From IMG/VR virus record IMGVR_UViG_3300025132_006978, positions 1 to 32,684 of that record: a stretch of 32,684 nucleotides of DNA; one strand, given 5' to 3'. Below, piece after piece: positions 5,226 to 31,559 of the stretch. The first letter of the stretch is position 1. The number at the start of each line of letters is the position of its first letter. Both the position numbers and the translations under genes were made by a program. The notes under the pieces were generated by a model. That model saw only the letters and a program-made list of their open reading frames with translations. It was not told the origin of the DNA and did no database searches. The stretch is from a virus.

Positions 5226-5498
5226 ATGTTTGGTGATAGAGAAGAAGATCATATGACAAAGGACGAGCACATCGTCAAATTTATTAAGGCATTTGTTGCC
5301 ATTGAAGAGGAGATGCAACCTCTCAAAGAGCATCTAAAAGACCTAAGAACCAGTTATGCTGAGAACGATTGGTTAACTAAAGAAGATATGCGCATGGCGG
5401 TCAAGGTGTATCGAATGTTGAAGCAAGGTGATGACCTTGAGATGATTACCGATTACTTCAACCACTTAAAGCAAAACTTCGGAGGCGCAAATGACTGA
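5226..5498 (+). CDS. Small helical protein, weakly GapR/DUF2312-like
   Basis: The 90 charged residues are predicted to be almost all alpha-helical. The order of a long helix (FIKAFVAIEEEMQPLKEHLK), a short turn (NDWLTKEDM), and a second helix (RMAVKVYRMLKQ) resembles GapR/DUF2312 nucleoid proteins, which clamp overtwisted DNA. That resemblance is pattern-level only. The gene has its own promoter and a GGAAAGGAG site, overlaps the GroES-like gene by 8 bases, and is therefore probably made early. An alternative is an unrelated coiled-coil protein. Confidence 0.75.
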   Translation: MFGDREEDHMTKDEHIVKFIKAFVAIEEEMQPLKEHLKDLRTSYAENDWLTKEDMRMAVKVYRMLKQGDDLEMITDYFNHLKQNFGGAND

Positions 5499-5811
5499 GG
5501 TGAAGAGGTTAAAGCCAGTCAATAGACACATCTCTATCGTCCCTCATTACAAGACTGAGAAGACTGATAGTGGAGTTATATTGCCTGACGACTTCAAGCA
5601 AGAAGAGGCTCGCTACATTAAGGCAACGGTTGTCGACATCGCTTCTGACTGTAAGAGGGATTTTCACGAACTCAGATACGGTACTGTGGGACCAAAGGAG
5701 ATCGTTGTCGATAAGTCCATGATAGAGTCTGTAGAGATCGGTGACAGCGTTCATTACATGATATTGGAAAATTACGTAGTTGGAATCTACAGGAGACCGA
5801 ATGAGAATTGA
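5491..5811 (+). CDS. GroES-like co-chaperonin (Cpn10/gp31 type)
   Basis: The 106 residues follow the Cpn10 plan: an N-terminal strand (LKPVNRHISIVP), the segment TDSGVILPDD matching the GroES start of the mobile loop region (xGGIILPD), KATVVDIASD matching the xGxVVAVG strand, and a C-terminal VEIGDSVHYMILENY matching VKVGDxVxF. In the family a heptamer caps GroEL and closes the folding chamber. With a GroEL gene at 19935, the phage appears to carry both partners, though they are 14 kb apart and under separate promoters. The pairing is inferred. The gene overlaps thyX by 11 bases. Confidence 0.8.
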   Translation: MTEVKRLKPVNRHISIVPHYKTEKTDSGVILPDDFKQEEARYIKATVVDIASDCKRDFHELRYGTVGPKEIVVDKSMIESVEIGDSVHYMILENYVVGIYRRPNEN

Positions 5812-6505
5812 TTTGTTTGGAGACGACATCGGTGCGGTTGAGTACATTTCGCATATGGGTTCGGATTTGTCAGTTGTCAATGCCGCAAGAGTTTCTTTTG
5901 GAACAGAAAAAGGCGAGGTAGGTGAGAAAGATATTAAACTTATTAACTACCTTATGGCGCACAACCATTCGTCCCCCTTTGAACACTGTGCTATTACTTT
6001 TCGTTTTACCGTGCCTTTGTTTATTCGCAGTCAGCACCACAGGCATCGTACTTGGGCTTATAATGAAATATCTCGCCGATATACTGACGTAGACATTGAA
6101 TTTTATGAACCTAGAGAATTTAGGACACAACACAAAAGCAATAGACAAGCGAGCAATTTGGAATTTATCAACCCCATTGTTGAGTATAACAGGTCAGGAT
6201 TCCCAGTCTCCGCGAATGCCTCTAGTTTGGTCGAGACTCACCATCAAGAGTGTTTGAAACTTTTTGAGGAACTTATAGGTTCTGGTGTCTGCCGAGAGCA
6301 GGCTAGGGGGGTGCTACCCCAGAACTTGTATACCAAATACTATGGCACTGTCAACCTTCACAATTTGTTGAAGTTTGTGCAACTAAGAACTCACGAAGGG
6401 GCGCAGTGGGAGATACAACAAGTTGCCGAAGCGTGCCTAGAGATTGCAGAGGAACATTTCCCCCACTCAGTCCACTCGTTCATACAAAAGAAGATGGAGA
6501 AGTAA
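5801..6505 (+). CDS. thyX: Flavin-dependent thymidylate synthase
   Basis: A 234-residue enzyme that methylates dUMP to dTMP using FAD, NADPH and methylenetetrahydrofolate. The diagnostic RHRX7S motif is intact (R81-H82-R83 to S91, in RHRTWAYNEIS). The C-terminal RTHEGAQWEIQ matches the conserved substrate-binding helix. The start is taken at ATG 5801 with AGGAGA at 5791-5796, because an upstream in-frame TTG (5780) would add residues not seen in the family. With the dUTPase at 14341, which makes dUMP, and NrdJ, it completes a phage route to dTTP. The stop overlaps the next start (TAATG). Confidence 0.95.
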   Translation: MRIDLFGDDIGAVEYISHMGSDLSVVNAARVSFGTEKGEVGEKDIKLINYLMAHNHSSPFEHCAITFRFTVPLFIRSQHHRHRTWAYNEISRRYTDVDIEFYEPREFRTQHKSNRQASNLEFINPIVEYNRSGFPVSANASSLVETHHQECLKLFEELIGSGVCREQARGVLPQNLYTKYYGTVNLHNLLKFVQLRTHEGAQWEIQQVAEACLEIAEEHFPHSVHSFIQKKMEK

Positions 6506-6981
6506 TGGCGTTTCTGTTCTCACTTTGCCTGTTGTCTAGCCAGTACTTGGAACTCACCGACTATCAGCACAGTAACATGTGTAAGTATGAGGATACAATA
6601 AGGTCAGAGGCAAAGCGCAACTCTCTAGATCCTGCACTGCTTGCAGCGGTTATATATGTTGAAAGTGGGTTTTACAAAAATGCGGTCAGTCCCGCTGGCG
6701 CTTGTGGGTTAACGCAGGTAGTGCCAAAGTGGACTGGAGGACCAGAAAGTATGTTTACAAAATATACTTGCAAACAACTAAAAGACCCAAATACATCAAT
6801 AAGAGTTGGAGCGGAGATACTGTCTTATCACATTAGAGTGTACGCTGTTGGCAATGTTGATAGGGGGTTGTGCTACTACAATGCAGGCACAAAATGCATC
6901 ACAAAGAAGGGATTTTATAAAAGGCTATATTATGTTAAAAAAGTTAAGCGCATATATCGTCTGCTTTCTGACGATTGTTAG
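6505..6981 (+). CDS. Lytic transglycosylase (SLT/GH23 domain)
   Basis: A 158-residue protein. After a short hydrophobic N terminus (FLFSLCLLSS) that could be an export signal or signal anchor, it has the SLT fold: IRSEAKRNSLDPALLAAVIYVESGF with catalytic E53, AVSPAGACGLTQVVP (the usual SxxGAxGLMQ block), and a C-terminal YNAG turn. The family cleaves the MurNAc-GlcNAc bond of peptidoglycan, forming 1,6-anhydro ends. Lacking K/R near the N terminus, the signal is atypical. The ATG at 6505 overlaps the thyX stop, and the gene's 3' end overlaps the next lipoprotein gene by 50 bases. It may assist lysis or DNA entry; which one cannot be told here. Confidence 0.85.
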   Translation: MAFLFSLCLLSSQYLELTDYQHSNMCKYEDTIRSEAKRNSLDPALLAAVIYVESGFYKNAVSPAGACGLTQVVPKWTGGPESMFTKYTCKQLKDPNTSIRVGAEILSYHIRVYAVGNVDRGLCYYNAGTKCITKKGFYKRLYYVKKVKRIYRLLSDDC

Positions 6982-9013
6982 TTGCAGCGATGAGATCACG
7001 GTCGGTCCATCCGACATGGAACAACCCAGAAGTCTTGTGTCGGATGCCAGGACTCAGGATGTCCAAGTTATTACAATACCAGACATTACTGTTGATGCGT
7101 GGGTAGACCCATGCGCGAATATATCAAATACACATGTTAGGTTTTGTGACTGCAATCCGACTTGTTGTCAGCAGCAAACCTGGTACTGTCCACCCCAAGG
7201 TGTAGAAGTTCAGGCAAGGTACGCAGTTCTGGATATTTGCGACGAAAATCTGACTCCCTGCGACAGGAACAGAGACCCCAACTGCCCTCCTGCAGAAATA
7301 ATCGAACAGACTGAGTGCCAGCATGCTTTTGACTGTCCACCTGGTATAAATGAGGACTTTACCATGTACTATGACTGTGAAATAGATGGTACTTCTGGTA
7401 CTCAACAGGTTAGGTGCGACAAAGGTCGCCTTTATTACGGCGAATGTGTTACCTGCTTCGAGGAAGAGGAGGTCTGCGACAGTATTGACAATGATTGTGA
7501 CGGACAGATTGACGAGAACCAACTTAATGCCTGCGGCGGATGCGGACAGGTGCCTGAAGATATTTGCGACGGATTAGATAACGACTGCGATACTTTTATC
7601 GATGAGCAACTGATAAGAGAGTGCACAACCATCTGTAATTCTGGACTTGAGATCTGCGGTAACGGCAACTGGGTGGGGTGTACTGCCCAGCGACCAGTCG
7701 ACGAAGAGTGTGATGGACAGGACAACGACTGTGATAACTTTGTTGATGAGGGGTTGAACTGTCAATGTCCACCCGAGTCAGTTGGGGCCCTGGTTCCCTG
7801 CATGGAACCACCACTGACTTGTGGTATGGGATTCAAGACTTGTGAGTGTGTGAATGAGGAGTGCCAAGTCACACAGATGACCGAGTGTTTTGCTCTGTGT
7901 CACTGGATCCCAGAACTCGAACAGGACGGACAAACCTGTGATCAGTTTACTGGCATCCCCACAAATCCAGAGTTGTGCAACAATTTTGACGAGGACTGTG
8001 ATGTCCTGGTGGACGAGCAGTTGACCCGACCATGCTATACGGGCCCAGAGGGCACGCTGAATATTGGTGTCTGCGCAGAAGGTCTCCAGGTTTGTGATGC
8101 AGGACAATGGTTTGGCCAAGATGCCGCTGGTAGACAGATATCTGATCTTTGCGGTGGCGAGACCTTACCAAGTGACGAGATATGTGACGGTGCAGATAAC
8201 GACTGCGACGGCATTGTTGACTATGGGGAGGAGATACCAGAGACGGACATTCTGTTTATCGTAGACTGGTCTGGTTCCATGGAAAACTATATAAACGCAG
8301 TAAGGATGGCAATGAATAGGTTTGCACAAGACTTCTCTGCAGAAGATAAACTGAAGTGGGGACTGATCGTGGGACCAAAACTCAGAATAACACCAACGGG
8401 CAATGAGGAGATTCTTATATTGCAATCTGATATCGCAAACTTTGAAGATTTTCTAGTATCTTTCTCTGGTGTAGGTCAGTTTGACAACCAGACAGGACAG
8501 GAAATGCTTAGAGATGCGATATTGTTATCCATCGCCAACATTACGGGTAACCTTGGGTATGACTTCACGCAGGCTCGATGGGCAAACCGCGTGGGGTCTC
8601 GACCTGAACTCAAGTTTTTCAAAGTCAACTGGAGATCTAATGCCGACAGGGTCATTGTGCTTTTTAGTGATGAGTATTCCCAGTCTTTCCTTGTTCCTAG
8701 AGTCCAGTCGGACACAGTTTGGGATGCCCTGGATGCAACCCCCAACCTGAAGTTCTATGCATTCGCAGAGCGTCGCTCTCGTGTTTGGGACAACTTTGCT
8801 TCTCATGGTAATGGTCGCGTGTTTGAGTTGTCATCCAATCAGCAGCAAATGTATGACGACTTGATGTCCATACTGGATGAAATATGTCTTCCACCACAGG
8901 GAGAGCAAGAAGCGTACAATGATGTGCTCGACGGATTCATGACAGTTAAGAGCGACCAGATTGATAGGACACGAGGATCGAGATACGACTACAGTTTAGG
9001 TCTCTGCTGGTGA
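6932..9013 (+). CDS. Large lipoprotein with MopE-type Cys/Asp repeats and a von Willebrand A domain
   Basis: A 693-residue protein. The start is ATG 6932 because it exposes a lipoprotein signal: two lysines, a hydrophobic run, and lipobox IVSC with Cys18; Ser at +2 predicts the outer membrane. Residues 40-170 are Cys-rich and unrecognised. Five repeats of the form CDGxDNDCDxxxDE start near residues 181, 211, 259, 348 and 418 and match the MopE-type metal-binding motif common on surfaces of Myxococcota-like bacteria. A VWA domain follows (about 438-655) with the MIDAS motif DWSGS (D445, S447, S449). It probably sits on the infected cell surface. Candidate roles are superinfection exclusion, adhesion or metal capture; none is shown. 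AAAGG at 6919-6923 supports the start. Confidence 0.8.
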   Translation: MLKKLSAYIVCFLTIVSCSDEITVGPSDMEQPRSLVSDARTQDVQVITIPDITVDAWVDPCANISNTHVRFCDCNPTCCQQQTWYCPPQGVEVQARYAVLDICDENLTPCDRNRDPNCPPAEIIEQTECQHAFDCPPGINEDFTMYYDCEIDGTSGTQQVRCDKGRLYYGECVTCFEEEEVCDSIDNDCDGQIDENQLNACGGCGQVPEDICDGLDNDCDTFIDEQLIRECTTICNSGLEICGNGNWVGCTAQRPVDEECDGQDNDCDNFVDEGLNCQCPPESVGALVPCMEPPLTCGMGFKTCECVNEECQVTQMTECFALCHWIPELEQDGQTCDQFTGIPTNPELCNNFDEDCDVLVDEQLTRPCYTGPEGTLNIGVCAEGLQVCDAGQWFGQDAAGRQISDLCGGETLPSDEICDGADNDCDGIVDYGEEIPETDILFIVDWSGSMENYINAVRMAMNRFAQDFSAEDKLKWGLIVGPKLRITPTGNEEILILQSDIANFEDFLVSFSGVGQFDNQTGQEMLRDAILLSIANITGNLGYDFTQARWANRVGSRPELKFFKVNWRSNADRVIVLFSDEYSQSFLVPRVQSDTVWDALDATPNLKFYAFAERRSRVWDNFASHGNGRVFELSSNQQQMYDDLMSILDEICLPPQGEQEAYNDVLDGFMTVKSDQIDRTRGSRYDYSLGLCW

Positions 9014-9783
9014 AGATAGAAGAAGTCGTTGTTGGTGGGTGCGTTTATGCTTTGATTAAGTCTTTCACCAACAATCTGCCAATTGTCTTGACCAGTACAT
9101 GCCAGCCTACAGTTGATTTAAAGTTTGAGTCAAAGATAAGGATAGATCAACTACAAACGCATAGGCACTCAGAAGCGTGGTCAATGTTAAAGTTTCTGTG
9201 CGGTATGGACGGCTTGATAATTAATTCAAATTGTCTAGACTATGTAAGAGTCACCGAAGACACAATTAATTACAGCACTATAGATGTTCAATTTTCAAAA
9301 TGTCACTTGTTTCCTGACCCGATTATTAACAATGAACTTGAAATTATGTCAGTTGAAAACGAGAACATGTACAAGATTCTTGATTTTATGAGGTTGAAAT
9401 TTTGTGATGCGTCTAATTTATCTCCGATTTTCCCAAGAGAAACTTTTATTTCAACTATCGAAGCATTGAGCAAAAAAGAGATGTATGCACTTTCTTACCT
9501 CACAAAAGAACAGTTGACGAACTTCGAATATTCTGATACTATCAGTAGGTTCATAGTGGAAAAAGAACTACAGCACAGGGTTGATTTGCACAGACCTTTG
9601 ATTACAAAAAGTGGAACTGCAAGGCGAAAACCAAAACTAGAAGTTACCGAAAGGTTTGTTTTGCCCATGCGTGAATTGATATATAAGAGCACTAAGAAGG
9701 TTAAGTACTATGGTAGAAAGAAACGAAACAACATTATCAAGACATATAGCAGGGATAATACCAGTTTCCAAAGTTCAGTCTGA
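9010..9783 (+). CDS. Conserved phage protein of unknown function
   Basis: The 257-residue protein begins with GTG overlapping the preceding stop (GTGA). The N terminus (IEEVVVGGCVYALIKSF, followed by PIVLTS) resembles the first beta-alpha-beta of a nucleotide-binding fold and a family I associate, from memory, with marine myoviruses, where it sits beside the nucleotidyltransferase-like gene that also follows here. The C terminus is basic (KSTKKVKYYGRKKR). No catalytic residues can be assigned. It overlaps the next gene by 74 bases, which is unusually long for this window. Confidence 0.8.
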   Translation: MKIEEVVVGGCVYALIKSFTNNLPIVLTSTCQPTVDLKFESKIRIDQLQTHRHSEAWSMLKFLCGMDGLIINSNCLDYVRVTEDTINYSTIDVQFSKCHLFPDPIINNELEIMSVENENMYKILDFMRLKFCDASNLSPIFPRETFISTIEALSKKEMYALSYLTKEQLTNFEYSDTISRFIVEKELQHRVDLHRPLITKSGTARRKPKLEVTERFVLPMRELIYKSTKKVKYYGRKKRNNIIKTYSRDNTSFQSSV

Positions 9784-10513
9784 CATTGATCTCGTCCTTC
9801 ACCCCAGCGTCATGCCTATAGCAAATAATTTTTATGCCATACAAAGAAGTATTGTAGAGTGTTCGTACGTTGGGTGTAAAACAATATGGATAGTGTGCGA
9901 TGAATCTATATCTCCACTCTTGAAGAAGATATGTGGGGATTTTGTTTTGAATTTGGCTCAACACGAGAGGTCTAAGTTTACAAATTTCCCAACTCAGAAC
10001 AGAACATCGATACCAATTTTTTACGTACCGATATCTTATAAGAATATGAACAAAAAGGGACTTGGCGTATCTGTTGTCGAAGGTGTGAACGCAAGCTTTA
10101 CCATAAGTGATAAAATGTCGAAATGGATTACCCCCTACAGGTACTACGTGTCTTCGCCTTATGGAATTTACGATCCTAAGATAACCCAAGCTAGATCTTT
10201 AGTTAAGTCATTCGAATCTTTCAGGTATACGTTTCAAGATAGTAGCGCACTCAGTGGGTGTAACATGGGGTTTAGTTTTAGTGCGAGGCAGTTCAAGCAT
10301 TGTTCCTATTTGTTCAAAAAAATAAATGTTAAAAGTCACTATAGTCTTGACATGGTCTTCAATAATGATATAATGTATGAAAACAATGAATCAATTGAGC
10401 TAGATAATTACAGAGACATTTCATCCTGGCAGGGGTATCAAGACATGATGCACCAACCTCTGGAGATAAAGTCAGACTGGAGATATTGTTTCTCTGCTGC
10501 GATGAAAAATTGA
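9710..10513 (+). CDS. Nucleotidyltransferase-like conserved phage protein
   Basis: The 267-residue protein opens with HIAGIIPV and continues with SVMPIANNFYAIQRSIVECSYVGCKTIWIVC, a pattern like sugar-nucleotidyltransferase (GT-A-like) folds, where an early strand-loop is followed by helix and a (T/K)IWIV strand. Later blocks are IPIFYVPI, a V-x-G-(V/A) segment near the middle, and YYVSSPYGIY. I recall homologues in marine myoviruses next to the same upstream partner. The classic GxGTRL nucleotide loop is absent, so activity is uncertain. ATG 9710 is the first available start covering the conserved N terminus and has AAGAAGG upstream; an alternative ATG at 9812 would delete the first strand. 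Confidence 0.75.
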   Translation: MVERNETTLSRHIAGIIPVSKVQSDIDLVLHPSVMPIANNFYAIQRSIVECSYVGCKTIWIVCDESISPLLKKICGDFVLNLAQHERSKFTNFPTQNRTSIPIFYVPISYKNMNKKGLGVSVVEGVNASFTISDKMSKWITPYRYYVSSPYGIYDPKITQARSLVKSFESFRYTFQDSSALSGCNMGFSFSARQFKHCSYLFKKINVKSHYSLDMVFNNDIMYENNESIELDNYRDISSWQGYQDMMHQPLEIKSDWRYCFSAAMKN

Positions 10514-10523
10514 AAGGATTAGA

Positions 10524-13500
10524 ATGAAAACAGAACCTAAAATACCCTTTGTTGGGTTGCATGCACATTCCGTTGCGGGATCTATATTTGATGCACTGGG
10601 GTATCCGCAACAACACATGGACTATGCGTATGAAAATGGAATGGATGCCTTGGCACTAACTGACCACGGAAATGCTAATGGATTGGCATATCAGGTTATT
10701 CATGCCAAGAAGATGATGAAAGAGGGTAAGCAGTTTAAACCAATATTTGGTTGTGAAGCATATTTCGTGCCAAGTGTTGCAAACTGGAAGAAGGACTACG
10801 AGAAGGCCAGGGAAGATGCTAAGAATAAAAAATCATTAGAATCTGCGAAGTCAGGCGCGACAGTTGAAAACGAGGCTTCAAAGAAGCAGATGAAGTCCAT
10901 CCTCAACAGGAGGAGTCACCTCATACTTGTTGCCCAAAATCAAGAAGGACTACAGAATATCTACAAGATGATATCAAAGTCGTACATGGGTGACAACTTC
11001 TACAGATATCCAAGAATTGATTATGCGATGTTAAAGAAACACAACAAGGGCGTAATCGCAGCGTCTGCTTGTCTCGGTGGTGTTTATGCTGGTGACTTTT
11101 GGCAGAATAGGGACTATGGCGAAGACGCCGTCTTAGACGCGATGCGCACTACTACACAAAAGATGCAGTCTATCTTTGGGGATCGATGGTATGGGGAGTT
11201 ACAGTGGAACAACGTACCCGAGCAACATATTCTTAATCAATTTATAATCCAGATGCACTACGAGTTTGGTATTGATTTAATTTCTACTGCTGACTCACAC
11301 TATTACTCACCAGACGCCTGGAAAGATAGGGAGTTATATAAACGTTTGGGTTTCCTCGGACGCAAGGTAGAGTGGTTGAGTGATGAGTTACCTATTGATG
11401 TTGATGAGATTGGGTATGAACTTTACCCCAAAAATGGTGATCAGATGTGGGAGAGTTACAAAAAATATTCATCATTGTGCAATGTAGAGTATGATGATAA
11501 CTTGGTGTTGAACTCGATCTCTAGAACCTATGATATCGCACACAATAGGATTGAATCTTTCTTACCAGACAACACTGTTAGGTTACCAGATTTTGTTGTA
11601 CCAGACGGTAAATCTGCTGGTCAGGCATTGGCTGTTTTGTGCGTTGCGGGTGCAAAAGAAAAGGGGTTCGCTGATAAGAGAGAGTACATCGAAAGACTTA
11701 AGTATGAAGTGAATGTAATTGACGAACGAGGTTTCAGTAAGTACTTCCTGACGATGAAGAAGATTGCAGAGGAGGCAACGAGGATGCAGTTAACAGGCGC
11801 AGGCAGAGGTTCTGCGGCGGGTTCTCTGGTTGCTTATGCCCTTGGTATCACTCAAGTAGATCCGATCCGCTATGGTCTACAATTTGAGCGTTTTTTGACA
11901 AAAGGTGGATCTGGATATCCAGACATTGATTATGATGTTTCTGATCCTATGGTTCTAAAGGAACATTTGATTGATGAATGGGGTGATGATGTTGTGGTAC
12001 CTATCACAAACTGGAACACACTACAGTTGAGATCGCTCGTTAAGGACATCTCTAAGTTTTACAAGATACCATTTACCGAGGTCAACGCCGTTACAAATAG
12101 GATGGTGTTCGAGGCTACGCCCTTAGCGAAGAAGGAGCACGGAATAACTGCTGGCGTTTACAACCCAACTTTTGAAGAGTTGATGAAGTATTCCGAATCA
12201 CTCCAGAAGTTTTTACAGAAATACCCAGAAGTAGAGACGCATGTCAACGCTCTTTATGGGCAAACACGCTCTGCATCTCGTCACGCTGGTGGCGTTGTGA
12301 TCGGAGAGAATTTGAATGAATGGATGCCACTAATAAACTCGGGTGGTGTTAGGCAGACACCATGGTCCGAGGGGCAGAATGTCAGGCACCTGGAAACTAT
12401 GGGATTCATTAAGTTTGATATTCTGGGTTTGGCATCGCTCCGTATGATGGAGGATGCGATAAGACACGTACTAGTTAGGTATGAAGGGGTAAAGGATCCT
12501 ACGTTTCAGGACATTAGCGCTTTTTACGAATCTAGACTGCACCCAGAGAAGATCGATTTGAGCGACGAGGAGGTATGGAATAATGTTTTTCACCAAGGGA
12601 AGTGGGCAGGAATATTCCAGTTTACAGAGAATGGCGCACAAGACTTCTGTAAGAATGGTCGTCCTAACAACATTACGGACCTTGCTGCCATTACTTCTAT
12701 TTATCGCCCTGGTCCGCTTTCTGCAGGTGTTGACAAAATGTATATCGGCGCTAAGGAAAACCCTGAAGATGTAGAGTATCTTAACAGTTACGTTAGGGAT
12801 GTAACTGAAGAGACTTATGGATTTCTTATTTTTCAGGAACAGATCGCGATGCTTGCTCACAAGTTGGGCAAAAACCTCTCTCTTGATGAGGGAAACAAGT
12901 TGCGCAAATTGTTAACGAAAAAAGGTACAGGCGCTGCTCAGGCAGAGATGGATAAAATTTACGACAAGTTCAAGCGTGGGTGCTTGGAGAAGGGAATGAA
13001 AGCACATGAAGCTAAAGAGTTATGGGGTAAGTTCGAGTATTTTTCTGGTTACGGTTTTAATAAATCTCACGCTGTCTCCTACTGCGTACTTTCTTTTCAA
13101 TGCGCTTATCTTCTACATTATTATCCTGAATGCTGGTTAGCAGCATTCCTGGACAAGGAACCTGATAAGCGCAAGGAGCGCGCTATCAATGTTGCTAAGT
13201 CGTATGGGTATAAAATTGAACCACTCAATATAAACACTTCTGGTGTTAGGTGGGAGATCAGTGAAGACGGTAAGACATTGATTCAACCACTCTCTTCAAT
13301 TAAAGGTCTTGGCATGACAGCCATAGAGCAGATAATTAACAATCGACCATTCAATAAGATTGAGGACTTTCTGTTTAACGAGAATGTGAAATACTCGAAA
13401 TTGAACAAGAAGGCTGTGTCAGCGTTGTGTCTCAGCCAGGCGCTAAATTCTTTGATGGATGAGAGGTTTACGGGACTTAAGCACTTTTGGTCAGCAGTGG

Positions 13501-13946
13501 CTGTGAACCGCCCACGGAAGCAGTCAGTTCTAGAAGAGAACATAAGAGACTACGCGCCAGAAGGTGATTTTTCAGAGGAGGAGAAGTTACAGTACCTTGT
13601 AGATCTGGTCGGCATCTTTCCAATGAGCACCGTCGTCACAGAGCAGTTGCAAGGTAGAATTGATGAGTTGATGATACCACCAATATCAGAGTTTGATGCA
13701 GAACTTCAGGTTTGTTGGTTTATTCCAAGAGAAGTCTTGCAAAAGAAGACAAAAAATGGTAAGTTGTTTTATGTGGTTAAGGTGATCGATTCTAATTCGG
13801 AGGAGAACACTATCAAATGTTGGGGTGTTGACCCGAACAAAGACAAGATTTACGTGAACAGGCCTTACATGGCGCGCCTTCACTGGGACGCACAGTGGGG
13901 ATTCAGTACTAGATCAGTTAGAAAAACTTTTAGAATGTTAGCATAG
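10524..13946 (+). CDS. dnaE: DNA polymerase III alpha subunit (DnaE-type replicative polymerase)
   Basis: A 1140-residue C-family polymerase. The PHP domain (1-270) keeps all nine usual metal ligands: H13, H15, D23, H48, E78, H132, C183, D257 and H259. The Pol3 core has the GRGS block (GAGRGSAAGSLVAYALGI, from 425), catalytic D467 and D469 in GYPDIDYD, and the third Asp D632 in KFDILGL. Tandem HhH/OB regions follow, and the last 120 residues look like an OB fold. The beta-binding motif was not identified. With an intact PHP site it may proofread without an epsilon subunit, as reported for some bacterial DnaE enzymes. A DnaE in a phage otherwise resembling T4-like viruses is unusual. GAAAGGA precedes the ATG. 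Confidence 0.96.
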   Translation: MKTEPKIPFVGLHAHSVAGSIFDALGYPQQHMDYAYENGMDALALTDHGNANGLAYQVIHAKKMMKEGKQFKPIFGCEAYFVPSVANWKKDYEKAREDAKNKKSLESAKSGATVENEASKKQMKSILNRRSHLILVAQNQEGLQNIYKMISKSYMGDNFYRYPRIDYAMLKKHNKGVIAASACLGGVYAGDFWQNRDYGEDAVLDAMRTTTQKMQSIFGDRWYGELQWNNVPEQHILNQFIIQMHYEFGIDLISTADSHYYSPDAWKDRELYKRLGFLGRKVEWLSDELPIDVDEIGYELYPKNGDQMWESYKKYSSLCNVEYDDNLVLNSISRTYDIAHNRIESFLPDNTVRLPDFVVPDGKSAGQALAVLCVAGAKEKGFADKREYIERLKYEVNVIDERGFSKYFLTMKKIAEEATRMQLTGAGRGSAAGSLVAYALGITQVDPIRYGLQFERFLTKGGSGYPDIDYDVSDPMVLKEHLIDEWGDDVVVPITNWNTLQLRSLVKDISKFYKIPFTEVNAVTNRMVFEATPLAKKEHGITAGVYNPTFEELMKYSESLQKFLQKYPEVETHVNALYGQTRSASRHAGGVVIGENLNEWMPLINSGGVRQTPWSEGQNVRHLETMGFIKFDILGLASLRMMEDAIRHVLVRYEGVKDPTFQDISAFYESRLHPEKIDLSDEEVWNNVFHQGKWAGIFQFTENGAQDFCKNGRPNNITDLAAITSIYRPGPLSAGVDKMYIGAKENPEDVEYLNSYVRDVTEETYGFLIFQEQIAMLAHKLGKNLSLDEGNKLRKLLTKKGTGAAQAEMDKIYDKFKRGCLEKGMKAHEAKELWGKFEYFSGYGFNKSHAVSYCVLSFQCAYLLHYYPECWLAAFLDKEPDKRKERAINVAKSYGYKIEPLNINTSGVRWEISEDGKTLIQPLSSIKGLGMTAIEQIINNRPFNKIEDFLFNENVKYSKLNKKAVSALCLSQALNSLMDERFTGLKHFWSAVAVNRPRKQSVLEENIRDYAPEGDFSEEEKLQYLVDLVGIFPMSTVVTEQLQGRIDELMIPPISEFDAELQVCWFIPREVLQKKTKNGKLFYVVKVIDSNSEENTIKCWGVDPNKDKIYVNRPYMARLHWDAQWGFSTRSVRKTFRMLA

Positions 13947-14790: not shown

Positions 14791-15059
14791 GCGCCAAGAG
14801 GAAACTTATGAGATCTAAAAAGAAGCAAGCAGAGAAAGACATGGAGCGCAAGTTGGGTCTTTTCGACAAACTGCCAGATCATTGCTTGACTTGCTTCGCG
14901 CCCTATGATAAGATGAATAAAGAACAAGTAGAAACATGGAATGTTGTGGTCAGAGAGAAAGAAGGTCGAGTAAACCTTTATTGTCCAGATTGCTGGAGCA
15001 GAGCAACGAATCTCGTGAAGGAAATAGAAAAGGAAACAAATGAAAAGACAAACACATAG
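14787..15059 (+). CDS. Small zinc-ribbon protein
   Basis: The 90 residues start with a strongly basic helix (KRKLMRSKKKQAEKDMERK) followed by two CxxC knuckles, CLTC around 33-36 and CPDC around 66-69, separated by about 30 residues. This is the arrangement of a zinc ribbon. Function is unknown; nucleic-acid or RNA-polymerase binding is a guess from the basic tail and zinc site. It overlaps the dUTPase gene by 4 bases and the IMPDH-like gene by 20. Confidence 0.8.
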   Translation: MSAKRKLMRSKKKQAEKDMERKLGLFDKLPDHCLTCFAPYDKMNKEQVETWNVVVREKEGRVNLYCPDCWSRATNLVKEIEKETNEKTNT

Positions 15060-16038
15060 TTTTGATGACGTGTTACTGGTTCCACAGTACAGCGACATTG
15101 AATCTAGGTCCGAGGTAGACTTATCTCGACAGTTGGGTTCAAGTACTTATCGAATACCCATCATGTCGAGTCCTATGGATACAGTTACGGGTCTGAATAT
15201 GGCTTCCGTCTTCGGTGAAATGGGAGGCCTCGCCGTAACACACAGATACTGCGACATGGTTGAGCAATCGAAGATGACACCATTTAGTGCCGCAGCAGCG
15301 ATTGGAGTTACGGATGATTACATGGAAAGAATAGAATTCCTTAATAACGATTCGGGCGTGACCACGTTCTGTCTCGACGTTGCGCATGGGCATCATGCAT
15401 TAGTCGAGCGAGCGTTGAAGTCGATTAGGGACAAATACGGAAACGGACTTGACCTAATTGCAGGAAATGTCGCTACCCCAAGGGGATATGTGGCACTGTC
15501 CGAGTGGGGTGCTGATGCAGTGAGGGTTGGTATTGGTGGAGGATCGATATGCTCCACGAGGGTGCAGACGGGACATGGAGTGCCAACGTTTGAATCTGTT
15601 TTGACTTGTAGTTATGAAGACGGTGCAGTAATTATCGCTGACGGGGGAGTCAAGACTGCGGGCGACATCGTTAAGGCTCTCGCCGCAGGTGCAGACTTTG
15701 TTATGCTTGGTTCTATGCTGGCAGGCACGGACCAAAGTCCAGGACAAGTTTTTCAGTCTAGTGATGGAAAAAAATACAAAGTATATAGAGGAATGGCATC
15801 AGTTGAAGCACAGAGGGACTGGAGAGGAGAGGCAAGGTCTTTAGAGGGAATATCCACAACTATCCCGTATAAGGGTTGTGTTGTAGACATTGTGGAAGGA
15901 CTCCTGCAGAACATAAGATCTGGTTTGTCGTATTCTGGTGCCCGCAACATTACTCAACTTCAGGCAAAGTCGGAGTTCATCGCCCAGTCGTCTGCATCCC
16001 AAGTTGAAAGTAGTACGCATATCTTGAGGAGACTTTGA
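15040..16038 (+). CDS. IMP dehydrogenase / GMP reductase family protein
   Basis: A 332-residue TIM-barrel without CBS domains. The barrel start FDDVLLVPQYSDIESRSEVD, the PMDTV loop, and the catalytic loop GGGSICSTR with C171 and T173 are intact. YRGMASVEAQ and LEGISTTIPYKG (E269) follow. The flap between these is only about 20 residues, and the overall length is close to GMP reductases (about 345), which favours GMP-to-IMP reduction. However SSPMDTVT resembles IMP dehydrogenase, so the direction cannot be fixed from sequence. Either way it adjusts guanine nucleotide pools. It sits in the nucleotide cluster and is followed one base later by a micro-gene. Confidence 0.88.
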   Translation: MKRQTHSFDDVLLVPQYSDIESRSEVDLSRQLGSSTYRIPIMSSPMDTVTGLNMASVFGEMGGLAVTHRYCDMVEQSKMTPFSAAAAIGVTDDYMERIEFLNNDSGVTTFCLDVAHGHHALVERALKSIRDKYGNGLDLIAGNVATPRGYVALSEWGADAVRVGIGGGSICSTRVQTGHGVPTFESVLTCSYEDGAVIIADGGVKTAGDIVKALAAGADFVMLGSMLAGTDQSPGQVFQSSDGKKYKVYRGMASVEAQRDWRGEARSLEGISTTIPYKGCVVDIVEGLLQNIRSGLSYSGARNITQLQAKSEFIAQSSASQVESSTHILRRL

Positions 16039-17867: not shown

Positions 17868-18161
17868 ATGGATATTGTTGGGTGGCGAGAAAGCAAGAAT
17901 GATGACAAGACTGTTATTTGCAGGATTCAATTAAAATACAAGGACGGCCGTAAAGTAAGGTCCTTATTAAATCAGTTAAATGAATGGGCTCAGTGTTCAG
18001 AAGGGTTTAGTCCCAAAAACAAAGAATCTATTCTAATTTTACAAAAGAAATTTCAAAGTGATAATAAGTGGAAATCTTTCTTGAGAACGTTTCCGTTTAG
18101 GATTGTTGAGAAGACTCCAACTAACAAGGAGAGAGTTTACAATGCCAAAAAAATTATCTAA
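17868..18161 (+). CDS. Small basic protein of unknown function
   Basis: A 97-residue protein. ATG 17868 is preferred over an in-frame GTG at 17850 because AAAGGAG (17856-17862) fits it. The N-terminal half reads as beta strands (VGWRESKN, TVICRIQLKYKDGRKV), and the C-terminal half is helical and basic. It overlaps the ClpP-like gene by 20 bases. No family recognised. Confidence 0.75.
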   Translation: MDIVGWRESKNDDKTVICRIQLKYKDGRKVRSLLNQLNEWAQCSEGFSPKNKESILILQKKFQSDNKWKSFLRTFPFRIVEKTPTNKERVYNAKKII

Positions 18162-18885
18162 ACACAGGTTTGGAGAGTTCGTGGTTCCGCGAGAGTATTC
18201 TAAGAAGAAGAAAAAGAAAGAGAAACAGGGGGAAACTCTTGAGGAATTGGCACAAGACTTCGCAGATGAAGTCGTCGACTCCGCAAAACAACCCATCTAC
18301 ATCATCAATAACATCGCAGGCAAGGATGATAAAGATGATATAAGGGCGATCAACTGCTATGGAGACATAACAGAGCGCATGGCCGCCGAAGTCGTTCAGG
18401 CGATGCTCTATTTCAATCACACCAAGACTGATGTGGTGGAGGCGGATGATGGCAGCGTTATGGAGGTCAAGAGGCCGTTCAAAATGTATGTTTCCACCCA
18501 CGGTGGAATTGTATCAGATATGTTTTCCATTATTGATATTATGGGAATGGTCAAGCAGGACTGCGACATTGAGACCATTGGCATCGGAAAAGTGATGTCT
18601 GCTGGCGTGTTAATTCTTGCGAGCGGTACCAAGGGCAGTAGGAAGATCGGACGCAATTGTAGGGTTATGCTCCATAGTGTGATCAGTGGCCACCACGGAT
18701 CATTCCCCAATATTGAGAACGAGATGAAGGAGACAAAAGAACTTCAGGACATGTACTTCAATTACCTCTGCTCGTGTACAAAGTTGACCAGGAGTAAGAT
18801 TAAAAAGTTACTTTTAAACAATGTTGACGCCTATTTATCTGCAGAGGAAGCGATCAAATACGGGATCGCAGACGATTATCTATGA
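18142..18885 (+). CDS. ClpP-like serine protease (S14 family)
   Basis: A 247-residue protein. The catalytic triad of ClpP is visible: S153 in GKVMSAGVLILASG, H178 in RVMLHSV, and D229 in VDAYLSAEEAIKYGIAD, which aligns with DRFLSAxEAxxYGLID. The oligomer-forming STHGG loop (118-122) corresponds to the SPGG of ClpP. A lysine-rich N-terminal extension (KKKKKKEK, 21-28) precedes the domain. No Clp ATPase is seen, so it would use host ClpX/ClpA, act alone, or serve as a prohead protease; some phage head proteases have this fold. ATG 18142 with AAGGAGAG upstream is the best start. The stop overlaps the next gene (ATGA). Confidence 0.88.
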   Translation: MPKKLSKHRFGEFVVPREYSKKKKKKEKQGETLEELAQDFADEVVDSAKQPIYIINNIAGKDDKDDIRAINCYGDITERMAAEVVQAMLYFNHTKTDVVEADDGSVMEVKRPFKMYVSTHGGIVSDMFSIIDIMGMVKQDCDIETIGIGKVMSAGVLILASGTKGSRKIGRNCRVMLHSVISGHHGSFPNIENEMKETKELQDMYFNYLCSCTKLTRSKIKKLLLNNVDAYLSAEEAIKYGIADDYL

Positions 18886-19934: not shown

Positions 19935-21512
19935 ATGAAACAATATTCTGATGGTAAGGATCTCCACAAGTTGATGCTTGGCGGAGTTAACACCCTTGCC
20001 GACAACGTAGCGTCAACATATGGACCCAAGGGTCGTAATGTTATTTTAAGGAAAAAAGATGGAAGACCAGTTATTACAAAAGACGGAGTCACTGTTGCGC
20101 GATTTGTCAATCTTGAAGATCCGTTCCAGAATGCGGCAGTTGAAATTGTCAAGCAGGCGTCGGAAAGAACAAACTCAGATGCAGGAGACGGAACTACAAC
20201 GTCCACAATTCTAGCAAGAGCGGTGTTTTCCAAGTCTTTAGAACTTATTGAAAAGGGGCTAAGTCCTGTCGAGGTGAAGAGAGGTCTAGACAAAGTTTGT
20301 GACCTGGTCTGCGATAAGATCACTGATGCATCAAGACCGATAACAAGCGTTGAGGACGTTGCTTTTGTAGCAAAGATATCCGCTAATAACGATCAAGTGA
20401 TAGGCGATCTTATTGCGACCGCAGTTGATAAAGTTGGCAAAGGAGGGTCAGTAACTATTGAGGATGGCCGTTCCACTGATACCACCTTGGATCTTGTAGA
20501 AGGATTTAGGTTTAGATCAGGATACCTATCTAATTATTTTGTAACCGATGAGAGAAGAAATGTTTGTAGATATGAGAGCCCTTTACTTTTCTTGTGTGAC
20601 GCCCAGGTTGACCAAGTACAACTTATTCTACCAGTTTTGGAGATTGCCGCAAGAGAACAAAAACCGTTAATCTTTATATGTGACGATGTCGAGGGTCAAG
20701 CGCTGTCGGCACTAATAATGAACTCAGTACGTGGGTCCATGAAAGTCGCAGCAGTCAAGTCACCAAAATATGGCGAAGAGAGAAAATCTCTGATGGAAGA
20801 CCTGGCTGTCGCAACAGGTGGCAAGTATTTTAAAACCATGTTAGGCGAGGAAGTAAAGGGGGTCACGATTAACGACCTTGGAACTTGCAAGACTATAGAG
20901 ATATCGAAGTATGGCACCATTGTTGTCGGCGGCGGCGGTGATCACTTAAGCTTGTTATCTAGGGTTGAAGACCTAAAAGAACAAGTTAAAGATGCTGAGA
21001 CTCTCGTAGATGCAGAGCAGATTCAAGAAAGAATAACAAGGTTGTCAAGCGGGGTTGCTGTCATTAGGGTTGGTGCTCCAACTGAAGTTGAAATGATTGA
21101 AAAGAAGCATCGCATCGAGGATGCACTTGAAGCTGTTCGATCTGCCCAAGAGGGCGGTGTGGTTTGCGGCGGCGGACTGGCACTGTATAGAATATCTCAA
21201 AGCATAATGGAGGACATCAAAGAACTAGATTTGACCGAAGACCAAATGTTTGCAGCAGACATATTTTTAAATGTGTTGCAGTCCCCCATTGCTACTATGG
21301 CTGATAACGCAGGTTTTGATTATGACACGATCCAAAGCCAAATTGAGAGTGAATCTTCAAATGTGGGATTTAATTTTCTTAACGGGGAAGTTGTAGATAT
21401 GTTCGAGTCTGGAATCATAGATCCAGCAAAGGTAACTATTAACGCATTAAAAAACGCAGTCTCGGCAGCAGGAACCTTACTGACCACCAATTATGCAATT
21501 ATAGAAGAATGA
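19935..21512 (+). CDS. groEL: GroEL/Cpn60 chaperonin
   Basis: A full-length 525-residue group I chaperonin. ATP-site landmarks are TYGPKGRNV (28-36), ITKDGVTVA with D50, and GDGTTT (84-89); a conserved D lies in IEDALEAVRSAQEGGVVCGGG. The apical domain (about 185-370) keeps the GYLSNYF and DVEGQALSALI substrate/GroES-binding helices. The usual GGM-repeat C-terminal tail is absent; the protein ends TNYAIIEE. It folds proteins inside a double-ring cavity, probably with the phage's own GroES-like protein at 5491, perhaps to fold the capsid protein. It is driven by a near-perfect promoter. Phage GroEL genes are known but uncommon. Confidence 0.97.
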   Translation: MKQYSDGKDLHKLMLGGVNTLADNVASTYGPKGRNVILRKKDGRPVITKDGVTVARFVNLEDPFQNAAVEIVKQASERTNSDAGDGTTTSTILARAVFSKSLELIEKGLSPVEVKRGLDKVCDLVCDKITDASRPITSVEDVAFVAKISANNDQVIGDLIATAVDKVGKGGSVTIEDGRSTDTTLDLVEGFRFRSGYLSNYFVTDERRNVCRYESPLLFLCDAQVDQVQLILPVLEIAAREQKPLIFICDDVEGQALSALIMNSVRGSMKVAAVKSPKYGEERKSLMEDLAVATGGKYFKTMLGEEVKGVTINDLGTCKTIEISKYGTIVVGGGGDHLSLLSRVEDLKEQVKDAETLVDAEQIQERITRLSSGVAVIRVGAPTEVEMIEKKHRIEDALEAVRSAQEGGVVCGGGLALYRISQSIMEDIKELDLTEDQMFAADIFLNVLQSPIATMADNAGFDYDTIQSQIESESSNVGFNFLNGEVVDMFESGIIDPAKVTINALKNAVSAAGTLLTTNYAIIEE

Positions 21513-23540: not shown

Positions 23541-23978
23541 ATGACACACGCAATTACTACATATAGACCTGGCCTTTTAGGCCACCAAGTTATCAACGAA
23601 GTGTTTGATAACTTTTTCAACGATGGGGATTTGTTCTCAAACGTTCTCAAGCAATCCACGAAGGGTTATCCAGTTGCCGACATTTATCGAGACGACGATG
23701 GTTCTACAGTTTTGGAGTTTGCTTTAGCGGGGTTCAAGAAGAAAGAACTCTCTATTGACATACAGCCTGGGAAGAGAACAATCACCATCACGGGACAAGT
23801 CGACGAGAAGAACGAGAAGCGGCAGCGAATTGCCAGGCGGAACTTTACTAGAACGTACGTGAACTACGACGACAATCTCGACTTGGCTGAGGCAGAGGCA
23901 CAGTTCGAAAACGGATTACTCACCGTTAGAGTCCCGCCGCGCCCAGAAGCGCGACCCTTGTCTATTGCAATAAAATAG
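23541..23978 (+). CDS. Small heat-shock protein (Hsp20/alpha-crystallin)
   Basis: The 145 residues carry an alpha-crystallin domain from about 40 to 135. It starts at YPVADIYRDDDGSTVLEFAL and includes AGFKKKELSIDI, RTITITGQ, RRNFTRTYV and the C-terminal GLLTVRVP. The final ARPLSIAIK contains an I-x-I motif, which links subunits into oligomers. The N terminus (VFDNFFN) resembles bacterial IbpA. It holds unfolding proteins for refolding by other chaperones. It is transcribed alone, from its own promoter to a strong terminator, with an excellent GAGGAGG site, so it should be abundant. Hsp20 genes are common in cyanophages and related marine myoviruses. Confidence 0.95.
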   Translation: MTHAITTYRPGLLGHQVINEVFDNFFNDGDLFSNVLKQSTKGYPVADIYRDDDGSTVLEFALAGFKKKELSIDIQPGKRTITITGQVDEKNEKRQRIARRNFTRTYVNYDDNLDLAEAEAQFENGLLTVRVPPRPEARPLSIAIK

Positions 23979-25437: not shown

Positions 25438-26352
25438 ATGATATTAAAAATAGGGTCGAATGGCGACGACGTAAAAGAACTGCAATTGGCACTGCGAGAG
25501 TTGGGATACAACTGCGGAGACATCGATGGAGATTTTGGAAGGGCAACTCGCCTTCAGGTGGAAAGGTACCAAGAGGATAACGAACTGCTGCCTGACGGCA
25601 TAGTCGGTAGTGGCACTCTGTCTGAGATAAGTAGGGACTTAGACAAGGCTGGTGCGGGAACATTTAAGTTTGAAATAGGTGACCACCCTGACCCAGAGGA
25701 ACCGTCAGACAAGATGGACTGGGTTCGAGTCGAGGCAGACCAGGTTGATAGAAGTCAGGGATACAACAGGTTCTACCTGAGACAAGATGCTGCAGAATCA
25801 TATAACGCCGCTAGGGAAGAAATACTATCTCTTGGTGGAGTCATCACTAGTTCTGGCGCGAAGAGGCCCCTCTCTGATTCAAAAAAAATGAAGTCTAGAA
25901 GCGTCAAGTCTCTGCACTATACTGGACTTGCTCTTGATTTGGCTCTCGACTCGGGGATGAATGATCCCAAAAGAGAAAGATACGTGATTGAAGAGGCTGG
26001 CGATAGAAGGTGGAACGTTTGGTGCAAGACAGACAACGAAGAAGTACCAGTTAGAGAAGTGATCGCTTACACATACCACCACACCAGGGTGCCAGTCAAG
26101 GCAAGAATGTTCTCTTTAACTGAAGTCTTCGAGAGACACGGATTTAAACCGATCAGGTCCAGAAGATACTTTATAGCAGGTGGTAACTACCTTGGTGCAG
26201 AGTGGTGGCACTTCCAGTATGAGAAGGCACTAACACCAGGCGTCTCTACTTTCGGTGGTGAACTGCTAAAAATTTACTCAATCGAGAAGTGTAGAAAGTT
26301 TGCGCCATGGGAAGATACAAAACATTGTATTTGGAAGGAATCTTGGTGGTAA
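25438..26352 (+). CDS. Endolysin: peptidoglycan-binding domain plus M15 peptidase
   Basis: A 304-residue enzyme. Residues 3-65 form a PG_binding_1 domain (GSNGDDVKELQLALRELGY, DGDFGRATRLQVERYQ). Residues about 100-262 carry VanY/M15 zinc-peptidase features: SLHYTGLALD with H160 and D167, and EWWHFQY with E255 as catalytic base and H258 as the third zinc ligand. The family cuts D-Ala- or L-Ala-containing cross-links or stems. No signal peptide is present, so it needs a holin, perhaps the 21564 product. A 40-residue C-terminal extension includes cysteines near the end. GGGAGG precedes the ATG. Confidence 0.88.
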   Translation: MILKIGSNGDDVKELQLALRELGYNCGDIDGDFGRATRLQVERYQEDNELLPDGIVGSGTLSEISRDLDKAGAGTFKFEIGDHPDPEEPSDKMDWVRVEADQVDRSQGYNRFYLRQDAAESYNAAREEILSLGGVITSSGAKRPLSDSKKMKSRSVKSLHYTGLALDLALDSGMNDPKRERYVIEEAGDRRWNVWCKTDNEEVPVREVIAYTYHHTRVPVKARMFSLTEVFERHGFKPIRSRRYFIAGGNYLGAEWWHFQYEKALTPGVSTFGGELLKIYSIEKCRKFAPWEDTKHCIWKESWW

Positions 26353-26387: not shown

Positions 26388-26416
26388 GTATAGACAATAA
26401 GATGAAAGGTTATATT

Positions 26417-27373
26417 ATGAATCTTGGATATGCATGCATCAACATGAATCTGTCCACACTTCCGAAGTCAAAGCGAGTTACGACTAATCGCTCTATGATT
26501 AAAAAGACTTTCCAAGAGAAGGGAATCGCGTACGCATCGGAGTTGGGACTGCAGAATTGCCAGGACCTTCTCGCCATCCTGCAGTGGAACGAGGCGAACG
26601 GAATCAAGTTCTTTCGTCTCTCTTCTGACCTATTTCCTTGGTCTTCAGAATATAGATTAAAGGACCTGCCAGACTACGAGGACATCGCATGGTGGCTAGA
26701 CCAAGCAGGATTGTATGCATGGAAGCATGGTCATCGCATCACTACACATCCAGGACCATTCAACGTCCTTGGATCTCCGAGACAGGGTGTTGTTGAGAAG
26801 ACTATTAAAGAACTAGAGACTCACTCAGAAGTTTTTGACCTGATGGGACTTCCAGATACTCCATACGCAAAGATCAATATTCATGTCGGCGGAACATATG
26901 GCGGCGATTTCTCAGGTACTGCCGACCGATGGTGTCGCAACTTCCTACGGTTGTCTCCCAATTGTCAAAACAGGATCACAGTAGAGAATGATGATAAGGC
27001 GTCCATGTGGTCGACTCGTCACTTATACGACTATGTACACAAGGTAATTCGTATCCCTATTGTATTTGACTATCATCATCACAGGTTCTGTACTGGCGAC
27101 CAGACCGAAGGCGAAGCACTGCAACTCGCAGCGTCCACTTGGCACGGGGTCACGCCCGTTGTTCACCTGTCGGAATCAAGAAGAAAAGAACAGCAAGATA
27201 GCAAAATTAAAGAACAAGCACACTCAGACTATATTTACAATCCTGTTGATAATTACGGTGTGAATTATGATATGATGCTTGAGTGTAAGAAGAAAGAGTT
27301 GGCACTATTGAAGTACAGAGACATACTAAACATTGGAGAAGAGAATGGTACAGAAGAAGAGGCATGTTGCTAA
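26417..27373 (+). CDS. uvsE: UV-damage DNA endonuclease (UvsE/UVDE family)
   Basis: A 318-residue TIM-barrel nuclease that nicks 5' of UV photoproducts and abasic sites to start excision repair. Family blocks visible are the N terminus NLGYACINMNLS, FFRLSSDLFPW, RITTHPGPFNVLGSP, KINIHVGGTYG, ITVENDDKASMWS and IPIVFDYHHH, supplying the His, Glu and Asp metal ligands. ATG 26417 starts exactly at the family N terminus with AAAGG (26405-26409) upstream, so the in-frame ATG 26402 is less likely. The gene has its own promoter. UvsE is rare in phages; it would suit sunlit surface waters. Confidence 0.94.
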   Translation: MNLGYACINMNLSTLPKSKRVTTNRSMIKKTFQEKGIAYASELGLQNCQDLLAILQWNEANGIKFFRLSSDLFPWSSEYRLKDLPDYEDIAWWLDQAGLYAWKHGHRITTHPGPFNVLGSPRQGVVEKTIKELETHSEVFDLMGLPDTPYAKINIHVGGTYGGDFSGTADRWCRNFLRLSPNCQNRITVENDDKASMWSTRHLYDYVHKVIRIPIVFDYHHHRFCTGDQTEGEALQLAASTWHGVTPVVHLSESRRKEQQDSKIKEQAHSDYIYNPVDNYGVNYDMMLECKKKELALLKYRDILNIGEENGTEEEACC

Positions 27374-28713: not shown

Positions 28714-29151
28714 ATGGGTAAGAAAACAATTGCAAAACAGGGTCGAGAGGTAAAGGTACACTACAAGGGTAGTTTTAAAGACGGAACGATCTTCGATAAT
28801 TCATATGACAGGGGGGAAGTGCTTAGTTTTACGGTGGGCGCAGGCGAAATGATTCCTGGTTTTGATTCCGCTGTAAACGGCATGAAGGTTGGAGAAACCA
28901 AGACTGTGACCATTGAGCCAACTGAGGCATATGGCGAGCATAATCCCGAAGGAGTCAGGGCGATTGACAAGCAGAACTTTCCAAATGATTTTGATTTTAG
29001 TCCTGGTGTTATGATTGAGGGCCAAGTTGGCGACCGCCCAGTGAGGGGTATCATTCAAGAGGTCGAAGGCGAATCTGTCGTCGTAGATTTTAATCACCCA
29101 ATGGCTGGAAAGAACCTCAACTTTGACATTGAGTTGATCGAGGTTAATTAA
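28714..29151 (+). CDS. FKBP-type peptidyl-prolyl isomerase, SlyD-like
   Basis: The 145 residues match SlyD: FKBP strands (REVKVHYKGSFKDGTIFDNS, FTVGAGEMIPGFDSAVNGM, GETKTVTIEPTEAYGE), an inserted-flap chaperone domain (about 75-125), and the closing VDFNHPMAGKNLNFDIELIEV. It speeds cis-trans proline isomerisation and binds unfolded chains. The histidine-rich metal-binding tail of E. coli SlyD is missing. TAATAAAGGAG precedes the ATG. With GroEL, Hsp20 and ClpP-like genes it adds to a phage proteostasis set. Confidence 0.93.
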   Translation: MGKKTIAKQGREVKVHYKGSFKDGTIFDNSYDRGEVLSFTVGAGEMIPGFDSAVNGMKVGETKTVTIEPTEAYGEHNPEGVRAIDKQNFPNDFDFSPGVMIEGQVGDRPVRGIIQEVEGESVVVDFNHPMAGKNLNFDIELIEVN

Positions 29152-30207: not shown

Positions 30208-30232
30208 TAGAAATCTACTGTGCCTCGATACC

Positions 30233-31540: not shown

Positions 31541-31559
31541 CTTTTTTTAAGGGATAAAT

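What the first reader, a model, noticed from the sequence alone, without database searches (positions are those of the whole stretch)
6932..9013. Phage-encoded MopE-repeat and von Willebrand A lipoprotein
A 693-residue lipoprotein combining five Cys/Asp MopE-type repeats with a VWA domain and intact MIDAS is a cell-surface architecture typical of Myxococcota-like bacteria, not of phages. It overlaps a lytic transglycosylase gene. It may alter the infected cell's surface or exclude rival phages, and may point to the host lineage.
Basis: partly seen in the sequence, partly recalled or inferred. Interest (0 to 1): 0.72.

Follow-up and report, generated by a model that had tools for sequence, protein, structure and literature searches.

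The report
Phage surface lipoprotein, MopE-VWA, viral core
A group of large ocean phages carries, beside its DNA-copying genes, a gene for a lipid-anchored, disulfide-rich protein with an integrin-like binding head; the phages appear to swap versions of it, and it probably changes the surface of the infected cell, but no function has been tested.

Summary
ORF 6932-9013 encodes a 693-residue lipoprotein: signal peptide with lipobox Cys18, a new Cys-rich N-domain, five MopE-type repeats and a C-terminal VWA domain. The lipobox Cys is invariant in 46 aligned relatives. The MIDAS is nearly canonical: D445, S447, S449 and D580 are invariant, the loop-2 Thr is not.

It is not a stray bacterial gene. 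The same search found 77 viral loci and, among about 85,000 prokaryote genomes, only one full relative, on what looks like a chimeric MAG contig. The carriers are uncultured marine far-T4 myoviruses. In the window's clade the gene is core: 33/33 DnaE-anchored contigs have it, against 0/28 in the sister group at that site.

New features: (i) the gene's genealogy is uncoupled from the phage backbone (Mantel r 0.02 with DnaE, lowest of 35 near-universal genes), so alleles are exchanged; (ii) a second, highly divergent version sits at the same site, sometimes in tandem; (iii) the folded core has an even Cys count in 45/46, and a disordered tail adds exactly one Cys in 45/46, usually the penultimate residue.

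Best reading: a surface lipoprotein made with replication genes, probably an exclusion or surface-remodelling factor. Function and host remain untested.

The parts
6932..9013 (+). Whole gene: MopE-VWA lipoprotein, 693 aa ('LIPO' in the report)
   Evidence: 46 aligned relatives, 43-90% identity
6932..6985 (+). Signal peptide 1-17 and lipobox Cys18 (...LTIVS|C)
   Evidence: Cys18 46/46; residue +2 is not Asp in 44/46
6986..7099 (+). Acidic, disordered tether, residues 19-56
   Evidence: pLDDT < 50 for 19-55; poorly conserved
7100..7462 (+). Cys-rich N-domain, residues 57-177, no Pfam family
   Evidence: A3 alignment; no Pfam hit
7475..8224 (+). MopE-type repeat stalk; five repeats at residues 182-195, 212-225, 260-273, 349-362, 418-431
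   Evidence: PF11617; 4-8 repeats in aligned relatives, mostly 5 or 6; 1 in a short relative
8228..8896 (+). VWA domain, residues 433-655; MIDAS D445-x-S447-x-S449 and D580
   Evidence: Invariant columns; fold match to integrin beta I-like domains
8897..9010 (+). Disordered C-terminal tail with one Cys (C692, penultimate)
   Evidence: Exactly one tail Cys in 45/46; penultimate in 42/46, versus 57/2530 for all predicted ORFs
6505..6981 (+). Lytic transglycosylase (SLT), overlaps the lipoprotein start by 50 bp
   Evidence: PF01464 E 9e-19; adjacent in other genomic contexts too
5780..6505 (+). ThyX, upstream neighbour
   Evidence: PF02511 E 3e-50
9010..9783 (+). Unknown ORF (o9010), its start overlaps the lipoprotein stop by 4 bp; follows the lipoprotein in the main context only
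   Evidence: no family
10524..13946 (+). DnaE DNA polymerase, used to anchor the presence/absence survey
   Evidence: PF07733, phrog_405

Best explanation
It is a phage-lineage outer-surface lipoprotein. Shown by sequence: signal peptide with invariant lipobox; disordered tether; disulfide-rich stalk with MopE repeats; a VWA head with a nearly canonical metal site; a tail with one spare Cys; core presence in one clade of marine far-T4 phages; position inside a tightly packed run of replication and nucleotide genes; exchange of alleles between phages independently of the backbone. Inferred: it is made early or mid-infection, exported and lipidated by the host, carried to the outer membrane (no Asp at +2), and the stalk holds the VWA head away from the membrane. 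The head binds a surface ligand through its metal site, and the single tail Cys makes a disulfide between molecules (a dimer or a covalent partner). The most likely job is to change the surface of the infected cell so that competing phages cannot adsorb or inject (superinfection exclusion).
For: Lipobox Cys 46/46. Purifying selection. Found in 33/33 clade contigs with at least 4 kb upstream of DnaE, 0/28 in the sister group. Packed among ThyX, DnaE, DnaB and RNR rather than with structural genes. Lowest correlation with DnaE of 35 near-universal genes, median of the others 0.89; DnaE tree rejected for LIPO and the reverse; 5/6-repeat type changes at least 6 times on the DnaE tree, 3-4 times on a VWA tree and once on an N-domain tree. 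A divergent version (VWA about 20% identity, hhalign E 1.6e-5) at the same site, tandem copies, and a hybrid gene. Weak co-variation with a hypervariable tail-fibre-like protein (r 0.33-0.42, p about 0.005; partial p 0.011). Precedent: T5 Llp is a phage lipoprotein that blocks the receptor, and exclusion proteins are made early (PMC9586334).
Against: No functional data. The metal-site loops are conserved, not hypervariable, so allele differences need not be binding specificities. Known exclusion lipoproteins are much smaller, and Llp acts from the periplasm. Several metabolic genes of these phages (IMPDH, ThyX) are also freely exchanged, so exchange alone is not specific, and IMPDH co-varies with LIPO better than the fibre does. 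The fibre correlation would not survive strict correction over 75 families. Surface (outward) exposure is not shown, and early expression is inferred from position only.
Confidence: 0.42

Rival explanations
1. Adhesin: the VWA head sticks infected cells to other cells or particles, so that progeny meet new hosts. Same export and anchoring, different purpose.
For: Best fold matches are adhesive VWA/I-like domains: integrins, and lower down a mussel byssus matrix protein (PTMP1) and pilus adhesin SpaC. Conserved metal site suggests one conserved ligand.
Against: Fold likeness of VWA domains says little about the ligand; no ligand is known. The gene sits with replication genes, not late genes.
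Confidence: 0.22
2. Envelope or lysis helper: together with the transglycosylase it weakens or remodels the outer envelope.
For: The SLT gene lies directly upstream and overlaps in the window; the SLT-lipoprotein pair is kept together in a different genomic context (L026, L036, L037).
Against: SLT was found next to the gene in only 24 of about 77 loci; many clade members have no SLT there. A VWA head on a long stalk is not a spanin-like design. A separate peptidoglycan-binding, VanY-like protein is at 25438-26352.
Confidence: 0.12
3. Virion component or capture device: the lipoprotein ends up on or near particles.
For: Weak co-variation with a tail-fibre-like protein.
Against: A conserved lipobox is unexpected in a virion protein; the gene is not in the structural module.
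Confidence: 0.07
4. A host gene recently captured by this phage, marking the host lineage.
For: MopE repeats are abundant in one large marine 'Deltaproteobacteria' MAG: 360 matches to the family profile, the listed ones mostly repeat-sized; that MAG has proteins with both VWA and MopE.
Against: 77 viral loci but no genuine bacterial orthologue in the same scan; core and syntenic in the clade; reverse domain order in that bacterium.
Confidence: 0.05
5. Metal scavenging: MopE repeats bind Ca or Cu for the infected cell.
For: Name of PF11617; the repeats are Asp-rich.
Against: The copper site of MopE itself is two His and a kynurenine (PMC3423442); the match here covers only the short Asp/Cys motif. 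A VWA head is not needed for scavenging.
Confidence: 0.04

Closest known systems
PF11617 (Cu-binding_MopE, 'putative metal-binding motif')
   Same: Five repeats match; profile over cut-off for the whole protein.
   Different: Only the short repeat motif is shared; no evidence of the MopE copper site.
VWA / integrin I-like domains (PF00092; integrin beta headpieces in PDB)
   Same: Fold and four of five MIDAS ligands.
   Different: 12-16% identity; loop-2 Thr not conserved; lipid-anchored on a MopE stalk.
T5 Llp and other phage exclusion lipoproteins (T1 Cor; Ltp of Streptococcus thermophilus phage TP-J34)
   Same: Phage-encoded lipoprotein that would act at the host envelope (PMC9586334, PMC3952083).
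   Different: Those are small; no MopE or VWA; Llp is periplasmic.
Bacterial MopE + VWA proteins (seen in MAG NP119, G016)
   Same: Both domain types in one protein.
   Different: VWA lies before the MopE repeats; no match of the phage VWA or N-domain profile in that genome or four relatives.
Unnamed BFVD entry A0A516KYY5 (266 aa)
   Same: Best viral structural match, E 6.9e-18, 26% identity.
   Different: Shorter; no annotation at hand.

Membership tests
Bacterial-type lipoprotein | Signal peptide ending in a lipobox Cys | tested here: met
   46/46 relatives
Bacterial-type lipoprotein | Lipidation and outer-membrane or surface location | not testable with these tools
   No Asp at +2 in 44/46 is compatible with outer-membrane sorting by the E. 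coli rule (background knowledge)
PF11617 MopE repeat | Profile score over the curated cut-off | tested here: met
   36.2 bits against 27; 46/46 relatives match at E <= 0.01
MopE copper-binding protein | His/kynurenine copper site | not tested
   Not examined; only the repeat motif was matched
VWA domain | Pfam score over cut-off | tested here: not met
   21.0 bits against 23.8 for the window protein
VWA domain | VWA fold | tested here: met
   Confident model, PDB matches E 4.5e-8, TM about 0.6
VWA domain with MIDAS | DxSxS ... T ... D | tested here: inconclusive
   DxSxS and D invariant; Thr in 28/46 only
Superinfection-exclusion lipoprotein | Blocks adsorption or injection of related phages | not testable with these tools
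   Needs an experiment
Known anti-phage defence systems (PADLOC) | Profile match | tested here: not met
   No match
Far-T4 phages (carriers) | gp23/gp20/terminase closest to far-T4 phages, contractile tail | tested here: met
   On relatives' contigs: tail sheath, gp20-type portal, gp23-type head protein, TerL; RM378 among the top MCP and portal hits, with Flavobacterium phage immuto and Microcystis phage Mel-JY01 nearer. The window itself holds none of these genes

The most novel reading that the evidence does not exclude
A phage-encoded, allele-swapping, integrin-like surface receptor that is covalently linked through one conserved C-terminal Cys and decides which phages can enter an already infected marine bacterium: a viral self/non-self or exclusion locus built from a MopE stalk and a VWA head, kept as a core gene by a whole phage clade.
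Probability: 0.2. Interest if true: 0.85.

Novelty: new variant of a known kind. Interest (0 to 1): 0.6.

Why it matters
Phage surface lipoproteins known to act in exclusion are small. Here a widespread uncultured marine phage clade keeps a large, disulfide-rich, integrin-like lipoprotein as a core gene and exchanges its versions between genomes. If it controls entry of competing phages, it gives a genetic handle on who can co-infect whom in the ocean. The single spare Cys and the two divergent versions make clear bench predictions. No paper holding the terms MopE, von Willebrand and phage together was found in the library searched.

Tried and rejected
Recent host capture: rejected by the viral versus genomic scan; the one genomic hit L082 looks like a chimeric contig, GC falling from about 0.65 to 0.35-0.45 where the phage-like sequence begins. 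TTG start at 6806: not conserved. Recoding in distant relatives: in-frame stops listed lie beyond the ORF end in L379; L380 and L377 were read in a wrong frame, and L380 was then found as an open 709-residue frame on the other strand. Late-promoter scan (TATAAATA): no site in the window and few elsewhere, uninformative. Host inference: SD motifs precede 56-70% of ATG starts against 6-12% at control positions, which speaks weakly against a Bacteroidota host; other far-T4 clades have been tentatively linked to Bacteroidetes/Flavobacteriales (PMC7198788, PMC13037479). Phylum-wide bacterial search reached only five genomes, so distant bacterial relatives in other phyla are not excluded. INPHARED phages: no match. 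NCBIfam and PADLOC: none. PHROGs: none.

Full report
What is there. The window is a 32,684-bp viral record. ORF 6932-9013 encodes 693 residues. From N to C: signal peptide ending in lipobox Cys18; a disordered acidic tether (19-56); a Cys-rich domain of its own kind (57-177); five MopE-type repeats; a VWA domain (433-655); and a disordered tail (656-693). PF11617 is over its cut-off; VWA is just below its cut-off by sequence but clear by fold. The gene starts 50 bp inside the end of a lytic transglycosylase gene, and its stop overlaps the start of the next ORF by 4 bp.

Who has it. One peptide-pattern scan found 77 viral loci, down to about 41% identity, all but a few in the same neighbourhood ThyX-(SLT)-lipoprotein-o9010-o9710-DnaE. 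The same scan over genome contigs found two loci: a short MopE match (L083), and L082, whose GC falls from about 0.65 to 0.35-0.45 where the phage-like part begins, so most likely a chimeric assembly. No match in 50,697 phage records. On a relative's 193-kb contig (G009) the structural genes are tail sheath, gp20-type portal, gp23-type head protein and terminase, nearest to Flavobacterium phage immuto, Microcystis phage Mel-JY01 and Rhodothermus phage RM378: far-T4 myoviruses. To avoid choosing genomes by the gene itself, loci were also collected by DnaE. With at least 4 kb upstream, 33 of 33 contigs with DnaE at 73% identity or more carry the lipoprotein there and 0 of 28 below 73% do. Some of the latter carry a relative elsewhere in the genome.

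How it is conserved. In 46 aligned relatives (43-90% identity) Cys18 is invariant, as are D445, S447, S449, D580 and E581; the loop-2 Thr is not. Synonymous sites are near saturation; where it could be computed, dN/dS is 0.03-0.12 for whole genes and 0.004-0.016 for the N-domain and VWA of the closest pair to the window. The exception is the tail, which changes fast. Yet exactly one Cys lies in the tail in 45/46, it is the penultimate residue in 42/46 (usually followed by Tyr or Phe), and the core has an even number of Cys (46, 52 or 54) in 45/46. Penultimate Cys occurs in 57 of 2,530 predicted ORFs of these genomes. Four relatives from the outgroup phages lack the tail Cys and have even totals. 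The simplest reading is that all core Cys pair and the tail offers one for a bond to another molecule. That is an inference from counting; no disulfide was observed.

Alleles move. Pairs of phages with DnaE 94-97% identical can have lipoproteins 45-49% identical, and pairs with lipoproteins 83% identical can have DnaE 74%. Over 14 large genomes the identity pattern of the lipoprotein is uncorrelated with DnaE (r 0.02) or TerL (0.09), while DnaE and TerL correlate at 0.98. Among 35 near-universal genes it is the lowest with DnaE; the median of the others is 0.89. AU tests reject each gene's tree for the other (only 1,000 resamplings, fewer than the program advises). The 5- or 6-repeat type changes at least 6 times on the DnaE tree, 3-4 times on a VWA tree, once on an N-domain tree, so parts within the gene are exchanged too. 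A second version with the same layout but a VWA of about 20% identity sits at the same site in other clade members; G006 (L045) has both in tandem; G032 has a second-version gene followed by a short one-repeat gene; L081/L251 is a hybrid. The genes that co-vary most with the lipoprotein include IMPDH, UvdE, ThyX and a hypervariable tail-fibre-like protein; these are weak (partial p 0.002-0.02 among 75 families) and need more genomes.

What it probably does. The gene sits with replication and nucleotide genes rather than structural ones, so early or middle expression is likely but not shown. A lipid-anchored stalk with a metal-site binding head points to the host envelope. Superinfection exclusion by phage lipoproteins has precedents (T5 Llp, PMC9586334; Ltp, PMC3952083), and exchanged alleles at a fixed core site would fit. 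An adhesin role is the main rival; a lysis role with the transglycosylase is less likely because that gene is often absent. The function remains untested.

Limits. Bacterial relatives were searched widely only by close peptide patterns; the profile search reached only five genomes of one small phylum. Reverse domain order was read from matched coordinates in one genome (G016). Orientation of the protein outward, lipidation, disulfides, expression time and host are all untested. 'Marine' rests on the contigs' metagenome origins as recalled and on the far-T4 literature, not on a tool result. ORFs were called mechanically.

Noticed in passing
30220-30555 (+): A second small Cys-rich putative lipoprotein (lipobox ...LLLSGC, then a Cys-rich stretch) far from the finding.
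   Followed up: no
L023 9667-9963; L025 around 9253-9510; L073 around 9761-10006: A small Cys-rich lipoprotein family directly upstream of the MopE-VWA gene in two different genomic contexts; weaker relatives elsewhere in G002.
   Followed up: partly
5491-5811, 18103-18885, 19935-21512, 23541-23978, 28714-29151: A set of protein-folding and turnover genes in one phage fragment: GroES-like, ClpP, GroEL-like, Hsp20 and FKBP (ClpP, Hsp20 and FKBP by Pfam; the GroE names are from reading the sequence).
   Followed up: no
15040-16038: IMPDH/GMP-reductase-like gene, also exchanged between genomes and the best co-variant of the lipoprotein.
   Followed up: partly
G009 66080-70153 (L087 6080-10153): Hypervariable repetitive tail-fibre-like protein (weak endosialidase tail-spike match), low correlation with DnaE among near-universal genes.
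   Followed up: partly
26402-27373 and 25438-26352: UvdE UV-endonuclease, and a peptidoglycan-binding protein with a VanY-like C-terminal part by reading.
   Followed up: no
31467-31541: tRNA-Arg (TCT), found by ARAGORN and Rfam.
   Followed up: no
L082 about 4950: Halieaceae MAG contig that appears chimeric with phage sequence at its end.
   Followed up: yes
G016 (MAG NP119): A 10.8-Mb bacterial genome with 360 matches to the A1 profile, the listed ones mostly in MopE-repeat positions, and many VWA proteins.
   Followed up: partly
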